Shown here: piece after piece, positions 50,968 to 64,000 of the stretch
Numbering within the stretch: position 1 is the first letter of the stretch
Layout: every line of letters begins with the position of its first letter
Source: Amaricoccus macauensis
GTDB lineage: Bacteria; Pseudomonadota; Alphaproteobacteria; Rhodobacterales; Rhodobacteraceae
DNA: 64,000 bases
Direction of reading: 5' to 3'
NCBI RefSeq assembly: GCF_014201905.1
Contig: NZ_JACHFM010000002.1
Location: 124,001-188,000, forward strand
The notes under the pieces: generated by a model
The model's input: only the letters and a program-made list of their open reading frames with translations
What the model was told of the DNA's origin: nothing
Databases searched by the model: none
Position numbers and translations under genes: made by a program

Positions 50968-51726
50968 TTGGCCCCGACGCGTGTTCATTTCGTGGCGAGC
51001 CAGGTCCTGCTCGCTCAGGAGGCTCTCGCCCGGCTCATCCGGCGCTACGGCCAGCATCCGGTCGAGGAGGCGGATGCGATCGTGGCGCTTGGCGGCGACG
51101 GGCTGATGCTCACCACCTTGCACCAGAACGCGGGGCTGCCGGTCTATGGCATGAACCGCGGGACGGTGGGGTTCCTGATGAACACCTACAACGACACGGG
51201 CCTGCTGGAGCGGCTGGCGGCGGCTGAGCCGGCGGTGATCAATCCGCTTCGGATGCGTGCCACCCGGGCCGACGGCGAGACGGTGGAGGCGCTGGCGATC
51301 AACGAGGTCTCGATCCTGCGCGCCGGGCCGCAGGCGGCGAAGCTGCGCATCCTCGTTGATGGCCGGGAGCGGTTGTCGGAGCTGGTGGCGGACGGGGCGC
51401 TGCTGGCGACGCCGGCCGGGTCGACGGCCTACAACTATTCGGCGCACGGTCCGATCCTGCCGATCGGCTCGGGTGTGCTGGCGCTCACCCCGATGGCGGC
51501 GTTCCGGCCGCGCCGCTGGCGGGGGGCGCTGCTGCCGAAGCTGGCGCAGGTCACCTTCGAGGTGCTGGAGCCGGAAAAGCGCCCGGTTTCGGCGGTCGCG
51601 GACAGCTATGAGGTCCGCGAGCCGGTGAGCATAGAGGTGGCGAGCGTGCCGGAGATCGGCCACCGGATCCTCTTCGATACCGGGCATGGTCTTGAGGAAC
51701 GGCTGATCCGCGAGCAGTTCATGTGA
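50968..51726 (+). CDS. nadK: NAD kinase
   Basis: Phosphorylates NAD+ to NADP+. 252 residues: GGDG at 42-45 ([13 protein letters not shown]), [12 protein letters not shown], the Asn-Glu pair in INEVSI, and [14 protein letters not shown]. Length is near the lower range for bacterial NadK, as is usual in Rhodobacterales. It probably starts at TTG (50968), as no ATG or GTG fits the family N-terminus; the gap to the UspA gene is 6 bases and no strong ribosome binding site is visible, so coupling to uspA is plausible. Confidence 0.92.
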
Positions 51727-51830: not shown

Positions 51831-52610
51831 TCAGACGGGCGGGTCCAGCAGGTCGGGTTCAGGCGCGGCGACCGGCACGTCGCCGACGACGCTCGCGGGC
51901 AGGCCGAGGAGGAGGAGCGGGCAGGGGTTGCCGACGCCGCGCCGGATCCGGTCCTCGAGCTTCTTCCAGTGAGTCGTCGCCTGGCCGAACTTGTCGGCGA
52001 TGAAGGTGCGGGCGAAGGCCTCGGCGAACTCCGTGCCGCCGGCCACCAGCCGCTCCACCGCCTGCACCTGCCGGTCAGTGCGCCGCTTCATGCCGAATTC
52101 CTGCAGTCCCTCGGCGTCGGCCGCACCGCGCTCGCGCAGGAACGCCGCGACCAGTCCGGCCATGCCGGCATTGAGCGCCGCGCCGCGGGTCACGATGATC
52201 CCGAGGCTGATCACCGACTGGGCGTGCAGGCGCTGGAAATTTTCGAGGTCGCGGTCGAAGAACGGATCCTTGTTGTTCCACTCGATCTCGAGCGCCAGCG
52301 TGCCCTTTTTGCCCCAGCGCACGTGGTCGATCTCGTGGGTCTGCGCCTCCTTGACCCGCCCGTCGACGGTCAACGCCATCTCGAAGCGGTGTTTGCGCCA
52401 ACCGGCGTCCGCGAGCCCGCGCCGAAGCCGCTGGGTCGAGCGCGCCTCGCCGCCGCCGCTGCCGATGATCTCGTCGGCAGGGATGCGGAAGCCTTCGAGG
52501 GCCCGCACGAGCTCCGCCGTCTCGTCGGGGAAGTCGACGGCAAGGATCGCCTCGGCGTGGTTCCGGGTCAGGACGTCGAAGCCGGCGGCGCGAAGGGCGT
52601 CGATCACCAT
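51831..52610 (-). CDS. BglII/BstYI-like type II restriction endonuclease, apparently without a methyltransferase partner
   Basis: 259 residues. The core EIDHVRWGKKGTLALEIEWNNKDPFFDRDLENF fits the BglII/BstYI nuclease family: Asp95 and Glu108/Glu110 are the likely metal-binding PD-(D/E)xK-like residues, and WNNKDPFFDRDL is a strong family signature. The C-terminal half (FARTFIADKFGQATTHWKKLEDRI) is helical. No DNA methyltransferase, transposase or other defence gene lies nearby, only aspS and NAD kinase. It may be an orphan, rely on a methyltransferase elsewhere, or be domesticated. Its start sits directly behind intergenic repeat copy C. Confidence 0.78.
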   Translation of the reverse strand: MVIDALRAAGFDVLTRNHAEAILAVDFPDETAELVRALEGFRIPADEIIGSGGGEARSTQRLRRGLADAGWRKHRFEMALTVDGRVKEAQTHEIDHVRWGKKGTLALEIEWNNKDPFFDRDLENFQRLHAQSVISLGIIVTRGAALNAGMAGLVAAFLRERGAADAEGLQEFGMKRRTDRQVQAVERLVAGGTEFAEAFARTFIADKFGQATTHWKKLEDRIRRGVGNPCPLLLLGLPASVVGDVPVAAPEPDLLDPPV

Positions 52611-52639
52611 GTCAGGGTCGGGAGTCCGGGAGGTGCCGG

Positions 52640-52867
52640 CGACCGATGCGCGCTCCGCGCGCGAGTCCCCGGCGCGCCAAGCGAAAGCACTGCTTTCGCC
52701 GCGCCGACGGCGGGGAGCACGGGACGTGCGGAGGCCGTCAGGGGTGACGATTTCTGCGGGAGGGTGCCAATCCGGCCATGGCTGCCCCGGCGGGCGCGCA
52801 AGCGCGCCTGCCCCTCGAAGGGGCAGTCGCGGACGGATTTGTCACCTGCCAAATCCGTCTCGTTTCG
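52640..52867 (-). repeat. Dispersed structured repeat, copy C (behind aspS)
   Basis: Read on the minus strand, in aspS orientation, it comprises: arms GACGGATTTG (52859-52850) and CAAATCCGTC (52841-52832) with an 8-base loop; a GACTGCCCC...GGGGCAG hairpin; a conserved GC-rich block; hairpin GCGAAAGC/GCTTTCGC (52699-52681) enclosed by CGGCGCG/CGCGCCG with a 4-base bulge; and a final GCGCGC/GCGCGC hairpin (52662-52648). The same series occurs at 60626 and 63699. It fills the 322-base gap between aspS and the endonuclease gene; no gene is in it. Confidence 0.82.
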
Positions 52868-52932
52868 CCGTCGCGACCAGCTTTCGGCCGCGGAATGGCG
52901 GCAATGTGACCCCGGCACCCGCACCACCGGGC

Positions 52933-54714
52933 TCACGCCTTTGGCGCGAGCCGGATCCCGAGGTCGCGGAGCTGTTCGTTCGTGGGCTCCGACGGCGCGC
53001 CCATCATCAGATCCTCGGCGCGCTGGTTCATCGGGAACATGATGACCTCGCGGATGTTCTCGGCCCCCGCGAGCAGCATGACGATGCGGTCCACCCCCGG
53101 CGCGATGCCGGCATGGGGCGGGGCACCGTACTTGAACGCCGAGATCATCCCGCCAAAGTGCTCGTCCACGTAGGCCTGGTCATAGCCGACGATCTCGAAG
53201 GCCTTGTACATGATTTCGGGCTTGTGGTTTCGCACCGCGCCGGAGGAGAGCTCCACGCCGTTGCAGACGATGTCGTACTGGAAGCCGAGCACGTCGAGTG
53301 GCGGCAGCTTTTCAAGCGCCTCGATCCCACCCTGCGGCATCGAGAACGGGTTGTGGCTGAAGTCGAGCTTGCCGGTATCGGGATCGGCCTCGTACATCGG
53401 GAAGTCGACGATCCAGCAGAAGTCGAACCGGTCCTCGACGGTGAGGCCGAGTTCCTTGCCGATGACGTTGCGCGCCTTGCCGGCCACCGGCTCGAACTTC
53501 GCGGGCAGGCCGCCGAGGAAGAAGACCGCGTCGCCCTCGCCCACGCCCATCTGCGCGCGGATCGCCTCGGTGCGCTCCGGCCCGATGGCCTTCGCCACCG
53601 GCCCGGCGGCTTCCATGCCGCCCGCCTCGGCCTTGCGCCAGAAGATGTAGCCCATGCCCGGCAGGCCCTCGCCTTGCGCGAAGGCGTTCATCCGGTCGCA
53701 GAACTTGCGGCTGCCGCCGCCCGGTGCGGGGATGGCGCGGACCTGCGTTCCCGGCTGTTCGAGAAGGCCCGCGAACACCTTGAAATCCGAGCCGCGGAAG
53801 TGGTCGGAGACGATCTGCATCTTGATCGGATTGCGCAGGTCCGGCTTGTCGGAACCGTACCAGAGCATCGAGTCGCGATAGGCGATGCGCGGGAAATCCT
53901 TTGTCACCGGACGGCCGCCGCCCAGTTCCTCGAAGACGCCGCGCATGACGGGCTCGATCGCCTGGAAGACGTCCTCCTGCTCGACGAAGCTCATTTCGAC
54001 GTCGAGCTGGTAGAACTCGCCGGGGGAGCGGTCGGCGCGCGGATCCTCGTCGCGGAAGCAGGGCGCGATCTGGAAGTAGCGATCGAAACCGGCCACCATG
54101 ATGAGCTGCTTGAACTGCTGCGGCGCCTGCGGCAGCGCGTAGAACTTGCCCGGGTGGAGCCGGGAGGGGACGAGGAAGTCGCGCGCGCCCTCGGGCGAGG
54201 ACGCGGTCAGGATTGGCGTCTGGAACTCGGTGAAGCCCTGTGCCCGCATGGCGTCGCGCAGATAGGCGATGACGCGGGAGCGCAGCATGATGTTGGCGTG
54301 CAGGCTCTCGCGGCGCAGGTCGAGGAAGCGGTAGCGCAGGCGCGTCTCCTCGGGGTAGTCGACTTCGCCGAAGACCGGCAGGGGCAGTTCCTCGGCGGCG
54401 GAGAGGACTTCGAGCTCGCGGATGTAGACCTCGATCTCACCAGTCGGGATCTTCGCGTTGACGAGTTCGGGCGCACGGGCCTTCACCACGCCGTCGATGC
54501 GCACGACCCATTCGGCGCGGACCTTCTCGGCGTCCTTGAACGCCGGGCTGTCGCCGTCGATCAGCACCTGGGTGATGCCGTAGTGGTCGCGCAGGTCGAT
54601 GAAGAGCACGCCGCCATGATCGCGCACCCGGTGCACCCAGCCCGAGAGCCGCACGGTCTCGCCGACGGCGGCCTTCGTCAGGTCGGCGCAGGTGTGGCTA
54701 CGGTAACGGTGCAT
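52933..54714 (-). CDS. aspS: Aspartyl-tRNA synthetase, bacterial type
   Basis: Charges tRNA-Asp. 593 residues: N-terminal OB-fold anticodon-binding domain ([23 protein letters not shown]), class II motif 2 ([20 protein letters not shown]), the bacterial GAD insertion (about 290-420), and motif 3 ([18 protein letters not shown]). Length is typical. In alphaproteobacteria the enzyme may also charge tRNA-Asn if no asnS exists; this cannot be decided here. It is followed on its own strand by repeat copy C and preceded by pabC. Confidence 0.97.
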
Positions 54715-54771
54715 CTTTGCTGGCTCCTCGGGCGATCAGGCCCGCGGATACACCCCGGCCCCTCTCCGGTG

Positions 54772-55416
54772 TCAAGCCCGACACTCGAATCGTGCGGAAA
54801 CGAGCCCGCGCAGCGAGTTGCCGATGAAGAGCCGCGCGCCGGCCAGATCCGACGGCCGGAGCACCGACTCGCGGGCGGCGCCGGTGGCGAGAAGCCGGGC
54901 GCGGAGGATGCCCGGCAGCAGACCGCAGGCGAGGGGCGGGGTGAGCAGGCCACCGCCGAGGTCGGCGAAGACCGTGGTGATCGTGCCCTCGCAGATCTCG
55001 CCGCGCTCGTTCAGGAGCAGCGCCTCGTCCACGTCCGGCGGGAGGGCGGCGCGGGCGGCGTCGTGGACCGGGCGGCGGGTGGTCTTCAGGCGCAGCCACG
55101 GATCGCGGGAGGCGAGGCGCTGGGGGGCGAGCGTCACCGTCCATTCGGCCTTTGCCGGCGCGAGGGCCGCGAACGTCGCCTCCGCCACGCCGTCGAGTGC
55201 CAGGGTCAGGCGCACCCGCTGGGTGCTGTTGCCTGTCACGGCGTCGAGCGCGCGCTCGATGCTGGCCGGTCTGAGCGAAATGCCGAGGGCGACGGCACCG
55301 GCGGCGAGCCGCGCGAGGTGCGCGGGCAGGCGGACGAAGCCGGTTGCCGGCTCCCATCGCAGCGTCTCGATGAGGGTCAGCCCGTTGGGAGCGTCGTCGC
55401 GAAGCGGGCCTTCCAC
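54772..55416 (-). CDS. pabC: Aminodeoxychorismate lyase-like class IV aminotransferase
   Basis: 214 residues of the PLP fold-type IV family: LTLIETLRWEPATGFVRLPAHLARL at the start, a central KTTRRPVHD segment with the likely PLP lysine, DEALLLNERGEICEGTITTVF, and PLACGLLPGILRARLL. It should release 4-aminobenzoate and pyruvate from aminodeoxychorismate in folate synthesis. Its start overlaps the end of pabB by 40 bases, so the pair is translationally coupled. The lyase role is inferred from pabB, since sequence alone cannot separate it from related aminotransferases. Confidence 0.88.
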   Translation of the reverse strand: MEGPLRDDAPNGLTLIETLRWEPATGFVRLPAHLARLAAGAVALGISLRPASIERALDAVTGNSTQRVRLTLALDGVAEATFAALAPAKAEWTVTLAPQRLASRDPWLRLKTTRRPVHDAARAALPPDVDEALLLNERGEICEGTITTVFADLGGGLLTPPLACGLLPGILRARLLATGAARESVLRPSDLAGARLFIGNSLRGLVSARFECRA

Positions 55417-56540
55417 AGCGCCTCCTCGTATTCGGCCGCGGCAGTCGAGTCCGCCACGACACCGCCGCCGACATTCAGGACCGCCTCCCCGCCTGCATAA
55501 AGCGCCAACGTGCGGATCGCCACGTTGAAACGCGCGCGGCCGTCCGGCGCGGCCCAGCCGATCGTGCCGCAGTAGACTTCGCGCGGGCCGGCCTCGAGGT
55601 CATGGAGGATCTCCATGGCGCGGACCTTCGGCGCGCCGGTGACCGAGCCGCAGGGGAAGAGCGCTGCGAAGATCTGCGCGAGGCCCGTGCCGGGGCGGAG
55701 GCGCCCGGTGACGCGCGAGACCATCTGATGGACGGTGGCGTAGCTTTCGACGGCGAAGAGGGAGGGCACCTCGACGGAGCCGATTTCGGCGATACGGCCG
55801 ATGTCGTTGCGCAGGAGATCGACGATCATCAGGTTTTCCGCCCGGTCCTTCGGGCTCCGGGCGAGGGCGGCGCGTGCGGCGGCGTCGGCGTCGGGGTCGG
55901 CGAGGCGGGGGGCGGTGCCCTTCATCGGCCGGGTCTCGATCCGGCCCCTGCCGTCGAGGGTGAAGAAGAGTTCCGGCGAGCGGGAGAGGATGTTCGCACC
56001 TGCGAGACGGACCAGCGCGGCCTCGCCGACGGGCTGGCGGGCGGCGAGGGCGGCGGCGATCGCCGCCGGATCTCCGGCCCAGCGGCCGTGGAGCGGAAAG
56101 GTGAGGTTCGCCTGATAAATGTCGCCTGCGCGGATATATTCCGCCACGCAGTCGAAGGCGGTCTGGTAGCGATCGGGGCTCCAGAGCGGGGTGAGGGTGG
56201 TGAGGCTGCCGCCCGGCGCCACGGGCCGGAGGGGGCGGGGTTCGTCGAAGACGCCGAAGGCGAGGAGGGGCTGCCGGCGGGTGGCGGGCAGGCGCGGGGC
56301 GAGGCGGGGCTCAAGGACGAGGCCGAGTTCGTAGGACGCGAAACCGGCGAGCCAGCGTCCGGCGCCGAGAGCTTCGTCAAGGGCGGCGAGGGCGTCGGGC
56401 ACTTCATCCGCGCGTCTTGCGACGATTTGCCGCAACGGGGCCTCGAAGCGGGCGGGCGTGCCCTCCGGGCCGGTCGCGACCTCGACGAACGCTTCCAGTT
56501 CGGCCCCATTGTCAGGGACATGCGCGCGCACGTGCTCCAC
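55377..56540 (-). CDS. pabB: Aminodeoxychorismate synthase component I
   Basis: Converts chorismate and ammonia to aminodeoxychorismate. 387 residues of the chorismate-utilising family: QANLTFPLHGRWAGDP, SPELFFTLDGRGRIETRPMKGTAPR, KDRAENLMIVDLLRNDIGRIAEIGSVEVP, LFPCGSVTGAPKVRAMEI. The PMKGT motif (with the lysine that attacks chorismate C2 in PabB enzymes) and the paired pabC gene support PabB rather than anthranilate synthase TrpE. It starts with GTG at 56540; another GTG lies 9 bases inside. The N-terminal 90 residues are shorter than in E. coli PabB. Confidence 0.92.
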   Translation of the reverse strand: MEHVRAHVPDNGAELEAFVEVATGPEGTPARFEAPLRQIVARRADEVPDALAALDEALGAGRWLAGFASYELGLVLEPRLAPRLPATRRQPLLAFGVFDEPRPLRPVAPGGSLTTLTPLWSPDRYQTAFDCVAEYIRAGDIYQANLTFPLHGRWAGDPAAIAAALAARQPVGEAALVRLAGANILSRSPELFFTLDGRGRIETRPMKGTAPRLADPDADAAARAALARSPKDRAENLMIVDLLRNDIGRIAEIGSVEVPSLFAVESYATVHQMVSRVTGRLRPGTGLAQIFAALFPCGSVTGAPKVRAMEILHDLEAGPREVYCGTIGWAAPDGRARFNVAIRTLALYAGGEAVLNVGGGVVADSTAAAEYEEALWKARFATTLPTG

Positions 56541-56710
56541 TCCGCCGTTGTCCCGTTCGCTCCCGCGCTTACGGCGGACCCGGCGCGAGATCCAGAGGTG
56601 GCCGTGACGGATGGTCGCATCGCGGGGGAAATGTCGAGCGGGGGCCTACCATTGCCATAGGAAGCAAGAACGCTAACTTGGCTTACGACTTGGAATGGCC
56701 GGATCGTATC

Positions 56711-58012
56711 ATGCTTGAGAAAGTCCTCGATTCCGCGCTGCGCAAGGGCATTGCGCATGGCAATCTGCGGCTGGTCTACCCCTCCGGGCGAGGCGAGACC
56801 TACGGCGACGGCAGCGGTCCTCCGATCGCGATCCGGATCACCGACCGCTCGCACATGCGCGCCATCGCCCTTGATCCCGGCCTTGCGGTTGCCGAATCCT
56901 ACATGGACGGCGCGCTGGTGGTCGATCACGGTGACATCTACGACCTGATCGCGATCGCAAAGTCGAACATGCGTCCCGAGGTATCCACCCCGGGGGCGTG
57001 GTTCCAGCACCTGCGCCGCAGCGTCACGCTGGCGCCCTTGGCCCATGCGGTCGGGCTGAAGGCGGCGCGGGCCAACGTGGCGCATCACTACGATCTCGAC
57101 GGCCGGCTTTACCGGCTCTTCCTCGACGGCGACATGCAGTATTCCTGCGCCTGGTTCGAGCGGCCGGACATGACCCTCGATCAGGCGCAGCTCGCGAAGA
57201 AGCGTCTCGTCGCCTCGAAGCTTCTGGTGCGCCCCGGTGCGCGGGTTCTCGACATCGGCTGCGGCTGGGGGGGCATGGCGCTCTATCTCGCGCGCTGCTG
57301 CGATGCCGAGGTCACCGGCATCACTCTCAGTCAGGAGCAGCTTCGCGTGGCCGAAGCGCGCGCCGAGGCCGCCGGTCTCGCCGATCGCGTGCACTTCCGG
57401 CTACAGGACTACCGCGAAATCAGCGAGACCTTCGACAACATCGTCTCGGTCGGCATGTTCGAGCATGTGGGCAAGCGCCAGTTTCCGGTGTTCTTCCAGT
57501 CGGCGGCGCGGCTTCTTGCGCCCGACGGGGTCATGGTGCTGCACAGCATGACCCAGCCATCTCCAGCGCTCTACAATCAGCCGTTCATCGAAAAGTACAT
57601 CTTCCCCGGCGGTTACATCCCGGCAGTCTCCGAGGTGGTTCCGTCGATCGAGAATTCGGGGCTGCTCCTGCGGGACCTCGAGATCCTGTCGGTGCACTAT
57701 GCCGAGACGCTGAGGGCATGGCGCGAGCGCTTTCTAACGCGCCGCGACGAAGTGCTGGAGCTCTACGACGAGCGGTTCATCCGCATGTGGGAGTTCTATC
57801 TCGCGGGTTCGGAAAGCGCGTTCCGGCATGATCATCTCCACGTCTCGCACTTCCAGCTTGCCCACGATCAGGAGCGCGTGCCGCTGACACGAGCCTATAT
57901 CGCCGAGGCGCAGGCGAGGCTTGTCGAGCGCGAGAAGCTGGTGCCGGACTATGCCCGGCTGCACGACAAGGCGCGGCCCGAACTTGCGCCGCTGCGGCGT
58001 GACGCCTCCTGA
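56711..58012 (+). CDS. cfa: Cyclopropane-fatty-acyl-phospholipid synthase
   Basis: Transfers a methylene group from S-adenosylmethionine to double bonds of membrane phospholipid acyl chains. 433 residues: an N-terminal lipid-binding-type domain (1-120), HHYDLDGRLYRLFLDGDMQYSCAWF, SAM loop VLDIGCGWGGMALYLA (179-194), DYREISETFDNIVSVGMFEHVG and FPGGYIPAVSE. The start at 56711 matches the family; the frame is open upstream but unrelated. A transglutaminase-like gene follows 136 bases downstream on the same strand. Confidence 0.93.
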   Translation: MLEKVLDSALRKGIAHGNLRLVYPSGRGETYGDGSGPPIAIRITDRSHMRAIALDPGLAVAESYMDGALVVDHGDIYDLIAIAKSNMRPEVSTPGAWFQHLRRSVTLAPLAHAVGLKAARANVAHHYDLDGRLYRLFLDGDMQYSCAWFERPDMTLDQAQLAKKRLVASKLLVRPGARVLDIGCGWGGMALYLARCCDAEVTGITLSQEQLRVAEARAEAAGLADRVHFRLQDYREISETFDNIVSVGMFEHVGKRQFPVFFQSAARLLAPDGVMVLHSMTQPSPALYNQPFIEKYIFPGGYIPAVSEVVPSIENSGLLLRDLEILSVHYAETLRAWRERFLTRRDEVLELYDERFIRMWEFYLAGSESAFRHDHLHVSHFQLAHDQERVPLTRAYIAEAQARLVEREKLVPDYARLHDKARPELAPLRRDAS

Positions 58013-58148
58013 AGCCCCGGGGGCGAGTTGGTTCGATCGGGGCCAATCGTGATGAGAGCGAGGAACTTCGGGGCCTCCGCTGAGTTTGACTCCTGAACCA
58101 GTCGGCAAGCCCGTACCGTTTGGTAAGATAACCTTTCAGGAAGTCTCG

Positions 58149-58994
58149 ATGCGCATCCGTTGCGGATATAACATCACCTATGCCTGCGAGCGGCCAACCC
58201 CGATGGTTCTGGCGCTTAACATTCATCAATCCCGGCGTGCTGACCTGTTGACTCCACAGATACTTCGGTTCAGCCCGAACGTGCGTGCGCGCGACTTCGT
58301 CGATGATTTTGGCAACGTGCTGACCCGCCTCGTGGCGCCCGAGGGCAGACTGACCGTCTCGACGCTGTTCGACGTGGCCGACAGCGGCAGGCCCGATGAG
58401 GTGGCGCCCGGGGCGCTCGAAGATCCGATCGACGCCCTGCCCGACGATGTGCTCGGCTTCCTGCACGGCAGCCGCTATTGCGAGGCCGATCTGCTTGCCG
58501 ATTTCGCCTGGTCGGAATTCGCGAAGGTGCCTGCCGGCTGGGCACGGGTGCAGGCAATCGTCGGGTTCGTCCACGGGCATATCGCGTTCGACTACAAGAA
58601 GGCCGACAGCCGGCGCACCGCCTTTGGCGCCTTTACCGATCGCGTGGGGGTCTGCCGCGACTTCGCGCATCTCGCGGTGGCGCTCTGCCGGGCGATGAAC
58701 ATCCCCGCGCGCTACTGCACCGGCTATCTCGGCGACATTGGTGTGGAGCCGTCCGGTCCGATGGACTTCAGCGCCTGGTTTCAGGTCTGGCTCGGTGGGC
58801 GCTGGTACACCTGTGACGCGCGCCACAACCGTCCCCGGATCGGCCGGGTGCTGATCGCGACGGGCCGGGACGCGACTGACGTGGCGATCTCGACGTCGTT
58901 CGGTGCGGCGAACCTGGAGGGCTTCGAGGTCTGCACCGACGAGATCTTCCCTGAGGTCGCGCCCGAGGCCCGGCGCGTGGTCTCCGTCGCCTGA
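58149..58994 (+). CDS. Transglutaminase-like protein with Ser in place of the catalytic His
   Basis: 281 residues. The nucleophile Cys169 (RVGVCRDFAHLAVALCRA) and the third position Asp223 (WYTCDARHN) are present. The usual His of HAW is Ser208 (MDFSAWFQVWLGG). The downstream segment IGRVLIATGRDATDVAISTSFG is a recognisable mark of a COG1305 subgroup in alphaproteobacteria. From memory that subgroup often carries Ser here, so this is probably a family trait rather than a local mutation, with altered or no protease activity. No signal peptide. The start at 58149 follows AGGAAG; an ATG-like start at 58086 is less likely. Confidence 0.83.
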   Translation: MRIRCGYNITYACERPTPMVLALNIHQSRRADLLTPQILRFSPNVRARDFVDDFGNVLTRLVAPEGRLTVSTLFDVADSGRPDEVAPGALEDPIDALPDDVLGFLHGSRYCEADLLADFAWSEFAKVPAGWARVQAIVGFVHGHIAFDYKKADSRRTAFGAFTDRVGVCRDFAHLAVALCRAMNIPARYCTGYLGDIGVEPSGPMDFSAWFQVWLGGRWYTCDARHNRPRIGRVLIATGRDATDVAISTSFGAANLEGFEVCTDEIFPEVAPEARRVVSVA

Positions 58995-59023
58995 CGGGCG
59001 CGCAACCTTGGCGCGACCGCAAC

Positions 59024-59051
59024 GTGACGGCCGCGTGACACGCCGCTTGAC
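59024..59051 (+). promoter_or_regulatory. Possible Pho box ahead of ugpB
   Basis: GTGAC (59024-59028), GTGAC (59035-59039) and TTGAC (59047-59051) recur with 11- and 12-base periods, the spacing of PhoB half-sites (here in the ATGACA orientation). They lie about 150 bases ahead of ugpB, whose operon is PhoB-controlled in E. coli and in rhizobia. Sequence match is partial. Confidence 0.35.
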
Positions 59052-59202
59052 GTCGCGGCACCGTCCCCAAGCGGGGCGCCTCCTGTGTTAAATCCTTCAC
59101 TTGCAGCCTGTCCTTGCTATTGTGACGGTGGCGCCGGTCGCCCGGTGCCCAACAGCGGGGCGAACCCACGCCCGTCCGATCGGCAAGGGAGACTTACCCA
59201 GA

Positions 59203-60504
59203 ATGAAACACCTGATGCCCGCGGCGATGGCCGCGCTGCTCGCGACTGCCGCCCCCGCGCTCGCCGTCACCGAAATCAGCTGGTGGCATGCGATGACCGG
59301 CGCCAACAACGAGGTGGTCGAGAAGATCGCCGGCGACTTCAACGCCAGCCAGTCCGACTACAAGGTGGTGCCGGTGTTCAAGGGCACCTATCCCGAGACG
59401 CTGAACGCCGGCATCGCCGCGTTCCGCGCCGGTCAGGCGCCCGACATCATGCAGGTGTTCGACGTGGGCACGGGCGTGATGATGGCCGCCGAGGGCGCGA
59501 TGAAGCCGGTGGCCGACGTGCTGACCGAAGCCGGTGCCACCTTCGACAAGTCGCAGTACCTGCCGGGGATCGTCGCCTACTACTCGAAGCCCGACGGCAC
59601 GATGCTGTCGTTCCCGTACAATTCGTCCTCGCCGATCCTTTACTACAACAAGGACATCTTCCAGAAGGCCGGGCTCGACGTCGATAATCCGCCGAAGACC
59701 TGGAATGAGGTCTGGGACGCGGCGAAGAAGATCAAGGCGTCGGGCGCGGCGCCCTGCGGCTACACCTCGACCTGGCTCACCTGGATCCATCTCGAGAACT
59801 TCGCCGCGTGGAACGATGTCCCCTACGGCACCAACGAGAACGGCCTCGCAGGGCCGGATGTGGAGCTGAAGATCAATGCGCCGATCTTCGTCAACCACTT
59901 CCAGGCGATTGCCGATCTCGCGAAGGACGGCACGTTCAAGTACGGCGGGCGCACGTCCGAGGCGAAGCAGATCTTCCTTGCCGGTGAGTGCGGCATCATG
60001 ACCGAAAGCTCCGGCGGTCTCGGCGACATCGTGAAGTCGGGGATGAACTACGGCATCGGCCAGCTGCCCTATGACAGCGATGCGGCCGGCGCGCCGCAGA
60101 ACACCATCCCGGGCGGCGCGAGCCTCTGGGTCTTCGGCGGCAAGTCGGACGAGACCTACAAGGGCGTCGCCGGGTTCTTCCAGTATCTGTCGCAGACCCC
60201 CGTGCAGGAGTATCTGCACCAGACCTCGGGCTATCTGCCGGTGACGATGGCGGCCTATGAGGCGACGAAGGCGAGCGGCTTCTACGAGAAGAACCCCGGC
60301 CGCGAGACGCCGATCCTCCAGATGATGGGCAAGGCGCCGACGGAGAACTCCAAGGGCGTGCGCCTCGTGAACCTGCCGCAGGTGCGCGACATCCAGAACG
60401 AGGAGTTCGAGAAGATGCTGGCGGGCGAGCAGACCGCGCAGCAGGCGCTCGACAACGCCGTCTCGCGCGGTGACGCGGCGATCAAGGAAGCGCTTGGCAA
60501 CTGA
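59203..60504 (+). CDS. ugpB: Glycerol-3-phosphate ABC transporter substrate-binding protein
   Basis: Periplasmic carrier for sn-glycerol-3-phosphate or glycerophosphodiesters. 433 residues: signal peptide at about 1-21 (LLATAAPALAV), then EISWWHAMTGANNEVVEKI, APDIMQVFDVGTGVMM, SFPYNSSSPILYYNKDIF and WTWIHLEN-like ligand-site sequence (TWLTWIHLENFAAWND), which are closely UgpB-like. GGGAGA lies upstream of the ATG. The gene is separated from ugpA by 358 bases holding repeat copy B, so it may be expressed at a higher level than the membrane components. Confidence 0.92.
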   Translation: MKHLMPAAMAALLATAAPALAVTEISWWHAMTGANNEVVEKIAGDFNASQSDYKVVPVFKGTYPETLNAGIAAFRAGQAPDIMQVFDVGTGVMMAAEGAMKPVADVLTEAGATFDKSQYLPGIVAYYSKPDGTMLSFPYNSSSPILYYNKDIFQKAGLDVDNPPKTWNEVWDAAKKIKASGAAPCGYTSTWLTWIHLENFAAWNDVPYGTNENGLAGPDVELKINAPIFVNHFQAIADLAKDGTFKYGGRTSEAKQIFLAGECGIMTESSGGLGDIVKSGMNYGIGQLPYDSDAAGAPQNTIPGGASLWVFGGKSDETYKGVAGFFQYLSQTPVQEYLHQTSGYLPVTMAAYEATKASGFYEKNPGRETPILQMMGKAPTENSKGVRLVNLPQVRDIQNEEFEKMLAGEQTAQQALDNAVSRGDAAIKEALGN

Positions 60505-60862
60505 GGCCGGGGCCGATGATCGGGGCGCGGAAATGATGCCGCTGGACTTCCGTGCCGTGCGCGTTCTCCGATCGCGCACGGCAACGCGACGACCCGGCGG
60601 CAGATTGCGCGCGCGGCTGAAGCACGACGGATTTGCCGAGCGACAGATCCGTCCGCGCCCGCCGGGCCAGCCACGAACGGATGGCGCGCTGTCGCGGAAA
60701 TCTGCGCCCCTGACGGCTTCCGCGTGTCCCGCACTGCCCGCCGCCGGCGCGGCGAAGGCAGTGCTTTCGCTTGTCGCGCCGGTCCTCGCGAGCCGGTGGC
60801 GCGCCACGGTCGTCAGGGCTCCGCTGTCTGCCCAATGCTGCCGATTGCCCGGGGGAGCCTGA
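60505..60862 (+). repeat. Dispersed structured repeat, copy B (between ugpB and ugpA)
   Basis: The repeat proper spans about 60626-60830. Arms GACGGATTTG (60626-60635) and CAGATCCGTC (60644-60653) differ by one base from perfect pairing. The second hairpin of copies A and C is largely missing (about 34 bases). The GC-rich block follows. Hairpin GCGAAGGC/GCTTTCGC is enclosed by CCGGCGCG (60744-60751) and CGCGCCGG (60775-60782). Bases 60505-60625 contain a further GTGCCGTGCGCG...CGCGCACGGCAA inverted repeat. There is no gene in the gap; the ugpB stop lies ahead in the same orientation. Confidence 0.8.
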
Positions 60863-61741
60863 ATGCGCGCGACCTTCCCGCATCGCTTTCTGCCGTACCT
60901 TCTCGTGGCGCCGCAGCTCGCGATCAGTCTGATCTTCTTCTACTGGCCGGCGGGGCAGGCGCTGCATCAGTCGGTGCTGCGCGAGGATCCGTTCGGGCTG
61001 AAAACCCAGTTCGTCGGCCTCGCGAACTTCCGGCGGGTGCTGGGCGATCCGGCCTATCTCAATTCGGTGCAGGTGACGGCGTTCTTTTCGGTCGCGACGG
61101 CCTTCCTTTCCATGGCGATCGCCCTCGTCCTCGCGGTGCAGGCGGAGAAGATCCTCCGGGGCAAGGGCTTCTACCGCACGCTGATGATCTGGCCCTACGC
61201 GGTGGCGGCGGCGATCGCGGGGATGCTCTGGCTTTTTCTGTTCAACCCGTCGTTCGGCACGCTCGCCTATCCGCTGCGCCAGATGGGAATCGCGTGGGAT
61301 CCGCTGCTGAACGGCAATCAGGCGATGGCGCTTGTCATCGGGGCGGCATCATGGAAGCAGATCAGCTACAATTTCCTGTTCTTTGTCGCGGGCTTGCAGG
61401 CCATCCCTAAATCTCTGATCGAGGCGGCGGCGATTGACGGCGCGGGGCGGACGCGGCGGTTCTGGACCATCGTCTTCCCGCTGCTCGCGCCCACGACGTT
61501 CTTCCTGCTGGTGGTGAACACCGTCTACGCGCTCTTCGATACCTTCGGGATCATCCACGCGGTGACCGGCGGCGGCCCGGGGAAGTCGACGGAGACGCTG
61601 GTCTACAAGGTCTACAACGACGGTTTCGTGAACCTGCAGCTCGGCTCGTCGGCGGCGCAGTCGGTGATCCTCATGGTGATCGTGATCGCGCTGACCGCCT
61701 TCCAGTTCCGCTATATCGAGAGGAAGGTCCACTATGGCTGA
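60863..61741 (+). CDS. ugpA: Glycerol-3-phosphate ABC transporter permease
   Basis: 292 residues, six predicted membrane helices, typical MalF/UgpA-type inner-membrane permease. The cytoplasmic EAA loop that contacts the ATPase is [25 protein letters not shown]. Early segment [25 protein letters not shown] fits UgpA. Its end overlaps the ugpE start by 8 bases. GGGGGAG stands just ahead of the ATG. It pairs with UgpE to form the pore. Confidence 0.93.
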
Positions 61742-62597
61742 GCCCACCATGGTCGGCGCCGGCCGGAGCGGGCAGGCGGCCGCGCATCTGATCCTCGTGC
61801 TCGGTGCGGTCGTCATCGCGTTTCCGATCTGGTACGTGTTCGTGGCCTCGACCCACTCGCTGCAGACGATCCTGCGGCCGCCCCTGCCGATGCTGCCGGG
61901 GAGCGAGGGGATTGCGAATTACTCCGAGGCGCTGGGCGGGGGGATCAACCGGATCGGCGGGGTGAGCGTCGGGCGGCTGCTCTGGAACACCGCCTTCGTC
62001 GCCACGGCGATCGCCGTCGGCAAGATCTTGATCTCCATCACTTCGGCCTATGCCATCGTGTTCTTCCGCTTTCCGCTGCGGATGGTGTTCTTCTGGCTGA
62101 TCTTCATCACGCTGATGCTGCCGGTCGAGGTGCGGATCCTGCCGACCTACAAGGTGATGGTCGATCTCGGGCTGATCGACACCTATGCTGGGCTGATCCT
62201 GCCGCTCATCGCCTCGGCGACCGCGACGCTGCTCTTCCGGCAGTTCTTCATGACGATCCCGAACGAGCTGCTGGAGGCCGCGCGGGTCGATGGCGCGGGG
62301 CCGTGGCGGTTCTTCAAGGACATCCTGCTGCCGCTGTCGGCGACGAACATCGCGGCGCTCTTCGTCATCCTCTTCATCTACGGCTGGACGCAGTACCTCT
62401 GGCCGCTGCTGGTGACGAACTCCAATTCGATGAACACCATCGTCATCGCGCTCCGGAAGATGATCTCCTTCGCCGATGCCGATACCCCCTGGCACTTGGT
62501 GATGGTGACCTGCGTCCTCGCGATCCTGCCGCCGATCCTCGTCGTCGTGCTGATGCAGCGGTGGTTCGTGAAGGGCCTCGTGGAAACGGAGAAATAG
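61734..62597 (+). CDS. ugpE: Glycerol-3-phosphate ABC transporter permease
   Basis: 287 residues, six membrane helices of the MalG/UgpE type: an N-terminal span [23 protein letters not shown], a central [23 protein letters not shown] loop [23 protein letters not shown], and C-terminal [11 protein letters not shown]. The start overlaps the ugpA end by 8 bases and the stop precedes the ugpC TTG by 2, so the membrane and ATPase genes are coupled. Confidence 0.93.
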
Positions 62598-62599
62598 CC

Positions 62600-63637
62600 T
62601 TGGCCACCGTCACGCTTCAGGACATCCGCAAGAGCTACGGGCCGACGGAGGTGATCCACGGCGTCTCGATCGACATCGCCGACGGCGAGTTCGTGGTCCT
62701 CGTCGGGCCGTCCGGGTGCGGCAAGTCGACGCTGCTGCGCATGGTGGCGGGGCTCGAGAGCGTGACATCGGGCACGCTGCGCATCGGTGAGCGGGTGGTG
62801 AACGACCTCGAACCCGCCGAGCGCGACATCGCCATGGTGTTCCAGAACTACGCGCTCTATCCGCACATGTCGGTCCGGAACAATCTCGCCTACGGGCTGA
62901 AGAACCGCGGCTTTGCGCGCGCCGAGATCGACCGGCGGGTGGCGGAGGCGGCGGCGATGCTGGAGATCGCGCCCTATCTCGACCGCAAGCCCGGACAGCT
63001 TTCCGGTGGCCAGCGCCAGCGGGTCGCCATGGGCCGGGCGCTGGTGCGCGAGCCGGCGGCGTTCCTGTTTGACGAGCCGCTCTCAAACCTCGACGCGAAG
63101 CTCAGGATCCAGATGCGGGTCGAGATCCGGCGGTTGCAACGGCGGGTGGGCACGACGTCGCTCTACGTGACGCATGACCAGATCGAGGCGTTGACGCTGG
63201 CGGACCGCCTGGTGGTGCTGAACGGCGGCGTGGTGGAGCAGATCGGCACCCCGGAGGAGGTGTTCGACCGGCCGGCGACGATCTTCGTTGCAGGCTTCAT
63301 CGGGACGCCGCCGATGAACATGGTTCCGGTCGACTGGCTGCGGGGAAAGGGTGAGCTCGACGCGGTGCCGGCGGCGGCCGATGTCGTGGGGATCCGGCCC
63401 GATGATCTCGATCTCGAGGCGCCGCCCGGGTCGCATCTGACGCTGCCCGCGACGCTTGAGCTGCTGGAGCCGGCGGGGGCTGAGTCGCACCTCTACGTGC
63501 GGCTCGACGGGCTCGATCAGCCGGCGACAGTGCGCACGCAGGGCCGGCCGGCGCTGGCGGACGGGGCGCGGCTCGCGCTCCATGTCCGGCCGGAGGCGCT
63601 GCATCCGTTCGTGAAGGCGACCGGGCGGCGGGCGTAG
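62600..63637 (+). CDS. ugpC: Glycerol-3-phosphate ABC transporter ATP-binding protein
   Basis: 345 residues of the MalK/UgpC type: Walker A GPSGCGKS (36-43), Q-loop [16 protein letters not shown], signature [16 protein letters not shown], Walker [16 protein letters not shown] and [16 protein letters not shown]-terminal regulatory TOBE-type domain (about 235-345) includes [11 protein letters not shown] and GIRPDDL. It starts with TTG at 62600, supported by GGAGA 7 bases ahead; no ATG or GTG fits. It powers UgpA-UgpE. Confidence 0.93.
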
Positions 63638-63698
63638 CCGACCTTGCCGCGCGGCCGAGGCAATGCGCCGCCGGGCCATTTCAGAGGCGGTGACGAGC

Positions 63699-63920
63699 GA
63701 CGGATTTGGCGGAGACAAATCCGTCCGCGACTGCCCCTGCGGGGGGCAGGCGCGATTCCGCGCCAGCCGGGGCAGTCACCGACGGATTGGCGCGCTTCCG
63801 CGGAAATCTTCGCCCTTTTCCGGCTTCCGCGCGTCCCGCGCTCCCTGCCCGCGGCCCGGCGAACGCGGTGCGTTCGCTTGTCGGGCCGGGACTCGCGCGG
63901 GCCTTTGGCCCGCGCTTTGG
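63699..63920 (+). repeat. Dispersed structured repeat, copy A (behind ugpC)
   Basis: Perfect 10-base arms GACGGATTTG (63699-63708) and CAAATCCGTC (63716-63725); GACTGCCCC (63729-63737) paired with GGGGCAGTC (63769-63777); a conserved GC-rich block; GCGAACGC (63859-63866) paired with GCGTTCGC (63870-63877) inside CGGCCCG (63852-63858) and CGGGCCG (63882-63888); and a final terminator-like hairpin. Relative to copies B and C the stems carry paired substitutions. No gene lies between 63638 and 63932. Confidence 0.84.
63895..63915 (+). terminator. Terminator-like hairpin at the end of repeat copy A
   Basis: GCGCGGGCC (63895-63903) and GGCCCGCGC (63907-63915) form a perfect 9-base stem with a TTT loop, followed by TTT. 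It is placed where the ugp operon transcript should end, facing the convergent gene at the right edge. Confidence 0.6.
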
Positions 63921-63932
63921 TCGATGAGGCGC

Positions 63933-64000
63933 TCAGGCCACCCGGTCCCAGAACCGGAGTTTGCCGCAGGCGGTGACGAACGGTTCCGCGCCCTTCTCGA
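63933..64000 (-). CDS. C-terminal end of an unrecognised protein (partial)
   Basis: On the minus strand a frame enters from the right edge and ends at TGA (63935-63933), giving the last 21 residues or so, ending PFVTACGKLRFWDRVA. The composition (Cys, Phe, Trp, basic residues) looks like a folded protein end, and the position behind the terminator-like hairpin fits a convergent gene. Too little is visible to name a family. Confidence 0.45.
   Translation of the reverse strand, partial: EKGAEPFVTACGKLRFWDRVA

What the first reader, a model, noticed from the sequence alone, without database searches (positions are those of the whole stretch)
52640..63920. Three-copy dispersed intergenic repeat with compensating stem substitutions
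About 200 bases recur at 52867-52640 (minus), 60626-60830 (plus) and 63699-63920 (plus). All share GACGGATTTG/CAAATCCGTC arms, a GC-rich block and a nested hairpin. In the inner stem the same pair is C-G in copy A (GCGAACGC/GCGTTCGC), A-T in copy C (GCGAAAGC/GCTTTCGC) and G-T wobble in copy B. In the outer stem CGGCCCG/CGGGCCG (A) is matched by CGGCGCG/CGCGCCG (B, C). Paired changes point to selection on a folded RNA or extruded DNA. Each copy follows a stop codon in the direction of that gene. I know of no named family matching it.
Basis: seen in the sequence. Interest (0 to 1): 0.85.

Follow-up and report, generated by a model that had tools for sequence, protein, structure and literature searches.

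The report
Old hairpin-rich mobile element copies
The three repeats are most likely worn copies of a small transposon-like element that cannot move by itself; relatives carry it too, one of them in great number, and its hairpins have kept their shape while their letters changed.

Summary
The repeat is real and not confined to the window: 26 model matches in this genome and 7 of 11 genomes of the genus, Amaricoccus judging by a named relative. The window matches no Rfam family. In that relative many copies are full MITEs: 70 of 112 have both 13-bp terminal repeats, and of these 29 have exact 9-bp target duplications, 44 within one mismatch (0.5 and 0.8 expected). A matching end bounds an element with an IS1595-family transposase. 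The window genome lacks that transposase and detectable terminal repeats; copy B's site is empty in a related operon. So the window copies look like fossils of a non-autonomous transposon. But copies show no orientation preference (7:9 and 25:23) and no clear G-U over A-C excess (35:20, p 0.058), so a sense-strand 3'-UTR RNA is not favoured. What keeps the stems matched (selection on DNA, arm-to-arm copying, or RNA) is open.

The parts
52640..52859 (-). Copy A, core of the element, between aspS (52933-54714 -) and a BglII-like endonuclease gene (51831-52610 -)
   Evidence: (228.3 bits, E 1.4e-43)
60626..60812 (+). Copy B, core, lacking the central hairpin; between the solute-binding-protein gene (59203-60504) and the first permease gene (60863-61741) of an ABC importer operon
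   Evidence: (164.4 bits); site without the element in relative G009
63699..63923 (+). Copy C, core; after the ABC ATPase gene (62600-63637)
   Evidence: (206.1 bits)
52850..52859 (-). Copy A strand S1 (GACGGATTTG); S2 (CAAATCCGTC) at 52832-52841; third strand S3 (GCCGGATTGG, one base off S1 in its first seven) at 52767-52776
60626..60635 (+). Copy B strand S1; its S2 carries one mismatch
63699..63708 (+). Copy C strand S1; S2 at 63716-63725; S3 (GACGGATTGG) at 63781-63790
52670..52706 (-). Copy A right-hand two-part hairpin (outer CGGCGCG/CGCGCCG, inner GCGAAAGC/GCTTTCGC)
60745..60781 (+). Copy B right-hand two-part hairpin (inner pair G-T)
63852..63888 (+). Copy C right-hand two-part hairpin (outer CGGCCCG/CGGGCCG, inner GCGAACGC/GCGTTCGC)

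Best explanation
The three repeats are old, no longer mobile copies of a miniature inverted-repeat transposable element (MITE) family of the genus Amaricoccus. Where the family is young, the element is about 310-340 bp, has 13-bp terminal inverted repeats, is flanked by 9-bp target-site duplications, and shares its ends with an IS1595-family element whose transposase most likely moves it in trans (inferred). Copies persist in gaps downstream of genes and are rare in divergent gaps, where promoters lie. The body is a chain of hairpins, including a three-strand arrangement in which the middle strand can pair with either neighbour. These stems stay paired while their letters drift between subfamilies and species. 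Shown: family, spread, ends and duplications in the relative, empty site for copy B, covariation. Inferred: mobilisation by the IS1595-type transposase, descent of the window copies from full MITEs, and maintenance of the fold at the DNA level in source copies or by arm-to-arm copying, rather than as an RNA function at each locus.
For: 26 matches in the window genome and 150 in G010, which is every candidate scored there. G010 is MAG Amaricoccus sp. Go_SlAct_bin_99: 29 of 30 flank probes found in its contigs. Of 112 full unique copies there, 70 have both terminal repeats within 2 mismatches; of these 29 have an exact 9-bp duplication and 44 are within one mismatch, against 0.52 and 0.77 for shuffled partners. 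The same terminal repeat (12 of 13 bases) ends an element that encodes DDE_Tnp_IS1595 (E 2.4e-41), Zn_ribbon_IS1595 and P63C proteins. This transposase has no match in G000. In G009 the orthologous SBP-permease gap (proteins 89% and 86% identical) is 73 bp without the element, against 358 bp in the window. Context: 0 of 26 copies in G000 and 5 of 92 in bin_99 lie in divergent gaps, against 13 of 51 and 81 of 285 background gaps of 60-600 bp. No predicted gene overlaps a copy by more than 30 (G000) or 60 bases (bin_99).
Against: Terminal repeats are not detectable around the 24 G000 copies tested: best left match 6.46 mismatches of 13 on average, control 6.22; right 5.79, control 5.56. So MITE status of the window copies rests on homology of the body and left flank and on the empty site of copy B alone. 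The transposase element is cut by a contig end; only one end is seen in one piece with the gene. 42 of the 112 bin_99 copies did not show both ends, and 26 of the 70 that did have no 9-bp duplication within one mismatch. No transposition was observed. Covariation across species and two further genera is stronger than a purely selfish, drifting insert seems to need, and rare variants are fewer in stems than elsewhere even among recent copies (31 alleles at 113 paired sites, 43 at 75 unpaired, p 0.0019).
Confidence: 0.82

Rival explanations
1. A structured RNA acting where it is inserted: transcribed from the upstream gene, it folds into alternative hairpins (S1:S2 or S2:S3) and controls decay or read-through, as REP sequences do between malE and malF in E. 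coli (recalled).
For: Strong covariation; mutually exclusive pairings that both covary; copies lie downstream of genes; copy B sits between a binding-protein gene and its permease genes; slight excess of G-U over A-C (35:20 cells, p 0.058; 25:15 distinct, p 0.15).
Against: No orientation preference in co-directional gaps: 7 sense and 9 antisense in G000, 25 and 23 in bin_99. G-U is only 35 of 1514 stem cells, and 8:7 against A-C among rare variants. None of the 6 terminator-like sites in 52600-64000 lies in a copy. Transposon-like ends and duplications in the relative.
Confidence: 0.12
2. The paired changes are made by mutation, not selection: during replication one arm of an imperfect hairpin is copied from the other by template switching, which keeps the arms, the third strand included, matched. 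(This concerns the cause of the covariation and can hold together with the MITE reading.)
For: Mutations that extend identity between arms of quasi-palindromes are known (PMC3820800, start of abstract seen in the listing). Here two-sided changes far outnumber wobble states (198 cells, 35 G-U cells), with no clear strand asymmetry. S3 is a direct repeat of S1 and follows it. Rare variants are fewer in stems.
Against: Unmatched, half-changed arms also persist in G000 (L007 and L017). The same pattern is expected from selection on a DNA hairpin; nothing here separates the two.
Confidence: 0.35
3. A domesticated 3'-end insulator or bidirectional terminator, kept because it stops read-through between convergent genes.
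For: Convergent gaps are enriched: 10 of 26 in G000 and 39 of 92 in bin_99, against 8 of 51 and 45 of 285 background gaps.
Against: No T-run terminator in the three window copies. Loss of insertions from promoters explains the same pattern. Sequence divergence in G000 and the missing central hairpin of copy B suggest decay.
Confidence: 0.12
4. A REP/RAYT-type element moved by a Y1 transposase acting on hairpins.
For: Many extragenic hairpin copies in one genome.
Against: Terminal inverted repeats and 9-bp duplications in G010 are not expected of Y1 transposition (recalled); no RAYT search was made.
Confidence: 0.03

Closest known systems
MITEPye1 of Paracoccus yeei (PMC11578231; section 3.6 read, passages)
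   Same: Short, gene-less, intergenic element with terminal inverted repeats shared with an IS and a predicted stem-loop fold; also an alphaproteobacterium.
   Different: 159 bp, 4-bp duplications, IS1182-type ends, 1-3 copies per chromosome; here 310-340 bp, 9-bp duplications, IS1595-type ends, 150 matches in one genome, and a covarying multi-hairpin body. No sequence comparison was made.
QMITE1/QMITE2 of Coxiella burnetii (PMC5896051, passages seen)
   Same: MITEs with strong palindromic folds; full-size QMITE2 has 7-9 bp duplications and a stem reported to be under purifying selection.
   Different: Other hosts, and no three-strand covariation in the passages seen. No sequence comparison was made.
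IS1595 family insertion sequences, e.g. ISApl4 (PMC12561309, passages seen)
   Same: IS1595 family by the paper's own naming; 8-bp duplications there, 7-9 bp in related IS1016 elements, so 9 bp fits.
   Different: ISApl4 ends are GGGGCTGTACTAGA; the ends here start CACACT. The element here carries a P63C gene. Transposase sequences were not compared.
REP/BIME, ERIC and similar extragenic palindromes (recalled)
   Same: Dispersed extragenic hairpins, mostly at 3' ends of genes.
   Different: No Rfam match at gathering score in the window; on four loci two sub-threshold matches to microRNA families only. Transposon ends and duplications in the relative.

Membership tests
MITE (non-autonomous DNA transposon) | Multicopy, short, without its own transposase gene | tested here: met
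   26 matches in G000, 150 in G010; no predicted gene overlaps a copy by more than 30 or 60 bases
MITE (non-autonomous DNA transposon) | Terminal inverted repeats in a relative with young copies | tested here: met
   In G010: 70 of 112 unique full copies have both ends within 2 mismatches
MITE (non-autonomous DNA transposon) | Terminal inverted repeats in the window genome | tested here: not met
   24 G000 copies, neither end better than control
MITE (non-autonomous DNA transposon) | Target-site duplications of fixed length | tested here: met
   9 bp in G010: 29 of 70 exact, 0.52 expected; not tested in G000, where the ends cannot be placed
MITE (non-autonomous DNA transposon) | Empty site in a relative | tested here: met
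   Copy B against G009. Copy A: its neighbour gene has only a 27% match in the genus, not taken further. Copy C not tested
IS1595-mobilised element | Ends shared with an element that encodes an IS1595-family transposase | tested here: met
   12 of 13 bases at the one end seen with the gene; DDE_Tnp_IS1595 and Zn_ribbon_IS1595; the other end was not identified with certainty
IS1595-mobilised element | Transposition in trans | not testable with these tools
   Needs an experiment
Rfam RNA family | Match at gathering score | tested here: not met
   0 matches in the window; E up to 1 on four loci gave two microRNA matches far below gathering score, one of them across copy C on the other strand
Sense-strand RNA element of 3' UTRs | Fixed orientation relative to the gene upstream | tested here: not met
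   7:9 and 25:23 sense to antisense in co-directional gaps
Sense-strand RNA element of 3' UTRs | G-U tolerated more than A-C in stems | tested here: inconclusive
   35:20, p 0.058; 8:7 among rare variants
REP/RAYT system | Associated RAYT transposase | not tested
   No search made

The most novel reading that the evidence does not exclude
The body is a selected three-strand switching module, not just MITE filler. S1, S2 and S3 keep matching one another through many letter changes (types GACGGAT, GCTGGAT, CGCGGAT, GCCCGAT, GCCGATT, GCCTGAT, ACTCGAT), in Amaricoccus and in two other genera of the family, while the transposon ends seem to differ between species (G003 read by eye). It could be a portable fold that toggles between two hairpin states, for example to gate its own transposition when extruded as single strands, and that is carried by different transposon ends.
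Probability: 0.2. Interest if true: 0.75.

Novelty: new variant of a known kind. Interest (0 to 1): 0.48.

Why it matters
It turns a puzzling intergenic repeat into a transposon family seen at two ages: one species still carries a candidate transposase and young copies with duplications, another only fossils. It gives a natural data set (227 model matches in seven genomes of one genus) to ask why hairpins in mobile DNA keep their pairing: selection on single-stranded or cruciform DNA, arm-to-arm copying during replication, or RNA. The three-strand covariation is unusual, as far as I know, and directly testable.

Tried and rejected
Known RNA family: no Rfam match at gathering score in the window; two weak microRNA matches at E up to 1 on four loci. 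Coding gene: copies lie between predicted genes (home-made gene finder). Intrinsic terminators: 6 terminator-like sites in 52600-64000, as many as in shuffles (6.0), none in a copy. Terminal repeats in G000: neither end above control. Empty site for copy A: its neighbour, a BglII-like endonuclease gene, has only a 27% match in the genus. Copy B in G004, whose permease is closest (91%): the contig ends 158 bases upstream, with no element in that stretch by eye, so the site cannot be judged. Wobble asymmetry as proof of RNA: inconclusive; no control with known RNAs was run. The first count of rare variants included arm sites that were invariant because the copies had been fetched by an exact match to those arms; one search repeats it without them. 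G003 copies seem to have other ends (about ATACCAxCTCCGGTTGATC) and one possible near-duplication, read by eye and not tested. Literature: searches listed no paper that describes this repeat, judged by titles, abstract starts and the passages I opened; only the open-licence PMC library was searched. The 2009 paper on the IS1595 family was seen only in a reference list.

Rows dropped: A2 holds 17 of the 26 G000 loci printed, plus 2 from G010; the shorter or broken copies were left out. A3 holds all 52 matches, among them five weak, overlapping or second matches, two of them on the strand opposite to a copy; they are in the counts. In the three-strand test five such rows and three rows with short arms were left out; 44 were used. 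In one search the group counts cover 25 and 21 of the 52 rows. Of 112 bin_99 copies, 92 could be placed between genes. R1 and A3 are fitted to a structure that I wrote from A2, so counts on A3 lean towards it; A2 itself is a plain MAFFT alignment.

Full report
Observation. The three copies are present at 52640-52859 (-), 60626-60812 (+) and 63699-63923 (+). Copies A and C share 83% identity over about 200 bases (E 9e-53). Single-sequence folds are more stable than most shuffles (z -2.7, -1.4, -2.7).

Family in this genome. BLAST with copies C and A gave 32 and 30 matching pieces in the 4.83-Mb genome, 40 candidates scored each time. A covariance model built from 19 copies gave 26 matches at E up to 0.001, the two weakest near 1e-4.

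Family elsewhere. The model matched 7 of 11 genomes of the genus: G000 26, G010 150 (all candidates scored), G006 24, G003 18, G004 4, G005 4, G008 1 (marginal, E 3e-4). In a draw of 61 genomes of 61 genera of the family it matched 3 including our own: G020 once and G022 twice, with stricter filters. A pattern scan of named genomes gave 111 stretches, all from the MAG Amaricoccus sp. Go_SlAct_bin_99; records of the window's own genome may be left out there. That MAG is G010 (29 of 30 flank probes).

Transposon anatomy in G010. Full copies are mostly 311-338 bp, start CACACTGCACGAC and end GTCGTGCAGTGTG. Among 112 unique full copies, 70 have both ends within two mismatches; the other 42 were not classified. 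Of the 70, 29 have exact 9-bp duplications and 44 are within one mismatch, against 0.52 and 0.77 with shuffled partners; exact 8- and 10-bp duplications number 2 each. Mean pairwise identity among every third core is 93%, which fits recent spread. Tandem pairs about 330-340 bp apart occur. The 112 were fetched by an exact match to the first hairpin, so copies with changed arms are missing, except where they lay near one that matched.

Partner. In the same MAG the terminal repeat also ends a larger element. In L231:1-2161 that element encodes a protein with DDE_Tnp_IS1595 (E 2.4e-41) and Zn_ribbon_IS1595 (7e-10) domains and a P63C protein (E 3.8e-23). The contig ends inside the element; a possible other end lies on another contig (L147) but was not joined. 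The transposase is found once in G010; G006 has a 42% match, G009 a 27% match (E 2e-26), G001 a 26% partial match (E 4e-5), and the other 7 genomes, G000 included, none. IS1595-type elements make 7-9 bp duplications (PMC12561309, passages), which fits 9.

Window copies look like fossils. No terminal repeat above control was found at either end of 24 G000 copies. The body and, by eye, about 30 bases of left flank are shared with G010. Copy B lies between a binding-protein gene and its permease, 358 bp apart. In G009 the orthologous pair (89% and 86% identical proteins) is separated by 73 bp without the element, and the more distant G001 and G005 operons also have short gaps.

Where copies sit. 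With a simple gene finder trained on 16 long window ORFs, the 26 G000 copies fall in convergent gaps 10, co-directional sense 7, co-directional antisense 9, divergent 0. In bin_99, 92 of 112 copies could be placed: convergent 39, sense 25, antisense 23, divergent 5. Background gaps of 60-600 bp: G000 convergent 8, divergent 13 of 51; bin_99 convergent 45, divergent 81 of 285. So copies sit at 3' ends and avoid promoters, with no preferred orientation.

Fold. On A2 (19 copies, plain alignment) local hairpins pair in 95.3% of cells, with 35 two-sided changes (shuffle mean 9.9, 0 of 500) and covariation 0.156 against 0.075. A long-range alternative, S2 with S3, pairs in 91.5% with 34 two-sided changes (0 of 500). 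The number of further pair types is not raised in either (403 and 297 of 500 shuffles reach it), and the two structures share three of their five helices. On A3 (52 matches, fitted) 27 of 37 pairs have two-sided changes, 198 cells against 52, and slid versions reach at most 22 cells. RNAalifold alone recovered only the right-hand hairpin and one long helix that is not in my structures: 24 pairs, 5 with two-sided changes.

Three strands. S1 and S2 form the first hairpin; S3 repeats S1, so S2 can pair with either. In 44 copies S3 matches its own S1 at 6.02 of 7 places and other types at 4.96; the best match lies 52-56 bases after S2 in 30 of 44. With one representative for each of 17 S1 types the match is 5.59 against 4.93 permuted, p 4e-4. 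Representatives are related, so the p-value is optimistic. Not all copies conform: several have best matches of only 4 or 5, or matches elsewhere.

RNA or DNA. If this strand were selected as RNA, G-U should exceed A-C; DNA is symmetric. Counts are 35:20 (p 0.058) in 52 matches, 25:15 distinct (p 0.15), and 8:7 among rare variants in bin_99. Other mismatches (44) outnumber G-U. Rare variants are fewer at paired sites (31 at 113) than at unpaired sites (43 at 75), p 0.0019. This fits DNA-level selection or arm-to-arm copying during replication (quasi-palindrome mutation; PMC3820800, start of abstract), but an RNA role is not excluded.

Verdict. An ordinary kind of thing (a MITE family with fossil copies in the window), with an unusual, well-supported feature: a multi-hairpin body whose stems, including a third strand, covary between subfamilies and species. 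No description was found in the papers searched, which cover open-licence PMC texts only.

Noticed in passing
L142-L252 (Amaricoccus MAG Go_SlAct_bin_99), e.g. L245:1862, L168:540: A second dispersed motif, about AAATCAATG(A/G)CTTnnnnAATTTTCACGCGTGAACA: the word ATCAATG(A/G)CTT occurs at 45 places in 853 kb, and 13 of the 14 printed carry TTCACGCGTGAA behind it. A G006 flank (L297) has the same word before another palindrome (TGTCCCCATGGGGACA). Unexplained.
   Followed up: partly
window 51831-52610 (-): BglII-like restriction endonuclease gene (PF09195, E 7.5e-25) beside copy A; among 11 genomes of the genus only a 27% match outside this one. The next gene (50992-51726 +) is NAD-kinase-like; no methyltransferase was looked for.
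   Followed up: partly
L090, L096, L104, L110 (G003): G003 copies of the family seem to have other terminal repeats (about ATACCAxCTCCGGTTGATC) and in one case (L090) a near 10-bp duplication; the same fold may ride on different transposon ends (by eye).
   Followed up: partly
L156, L162, L167, L170 and others (bin_99): A group of copies in bin_99 with a different right end: the terminal repeat is followed, reading inwards, by AGGAGCC and then the right-hand hairpins on the other strand; 15 such ends.
   Followed up: partly
L231:1-2161: IS1595-type element carrying a P63C-domain gene of unknown role beside the transposase.
   Followed up: no
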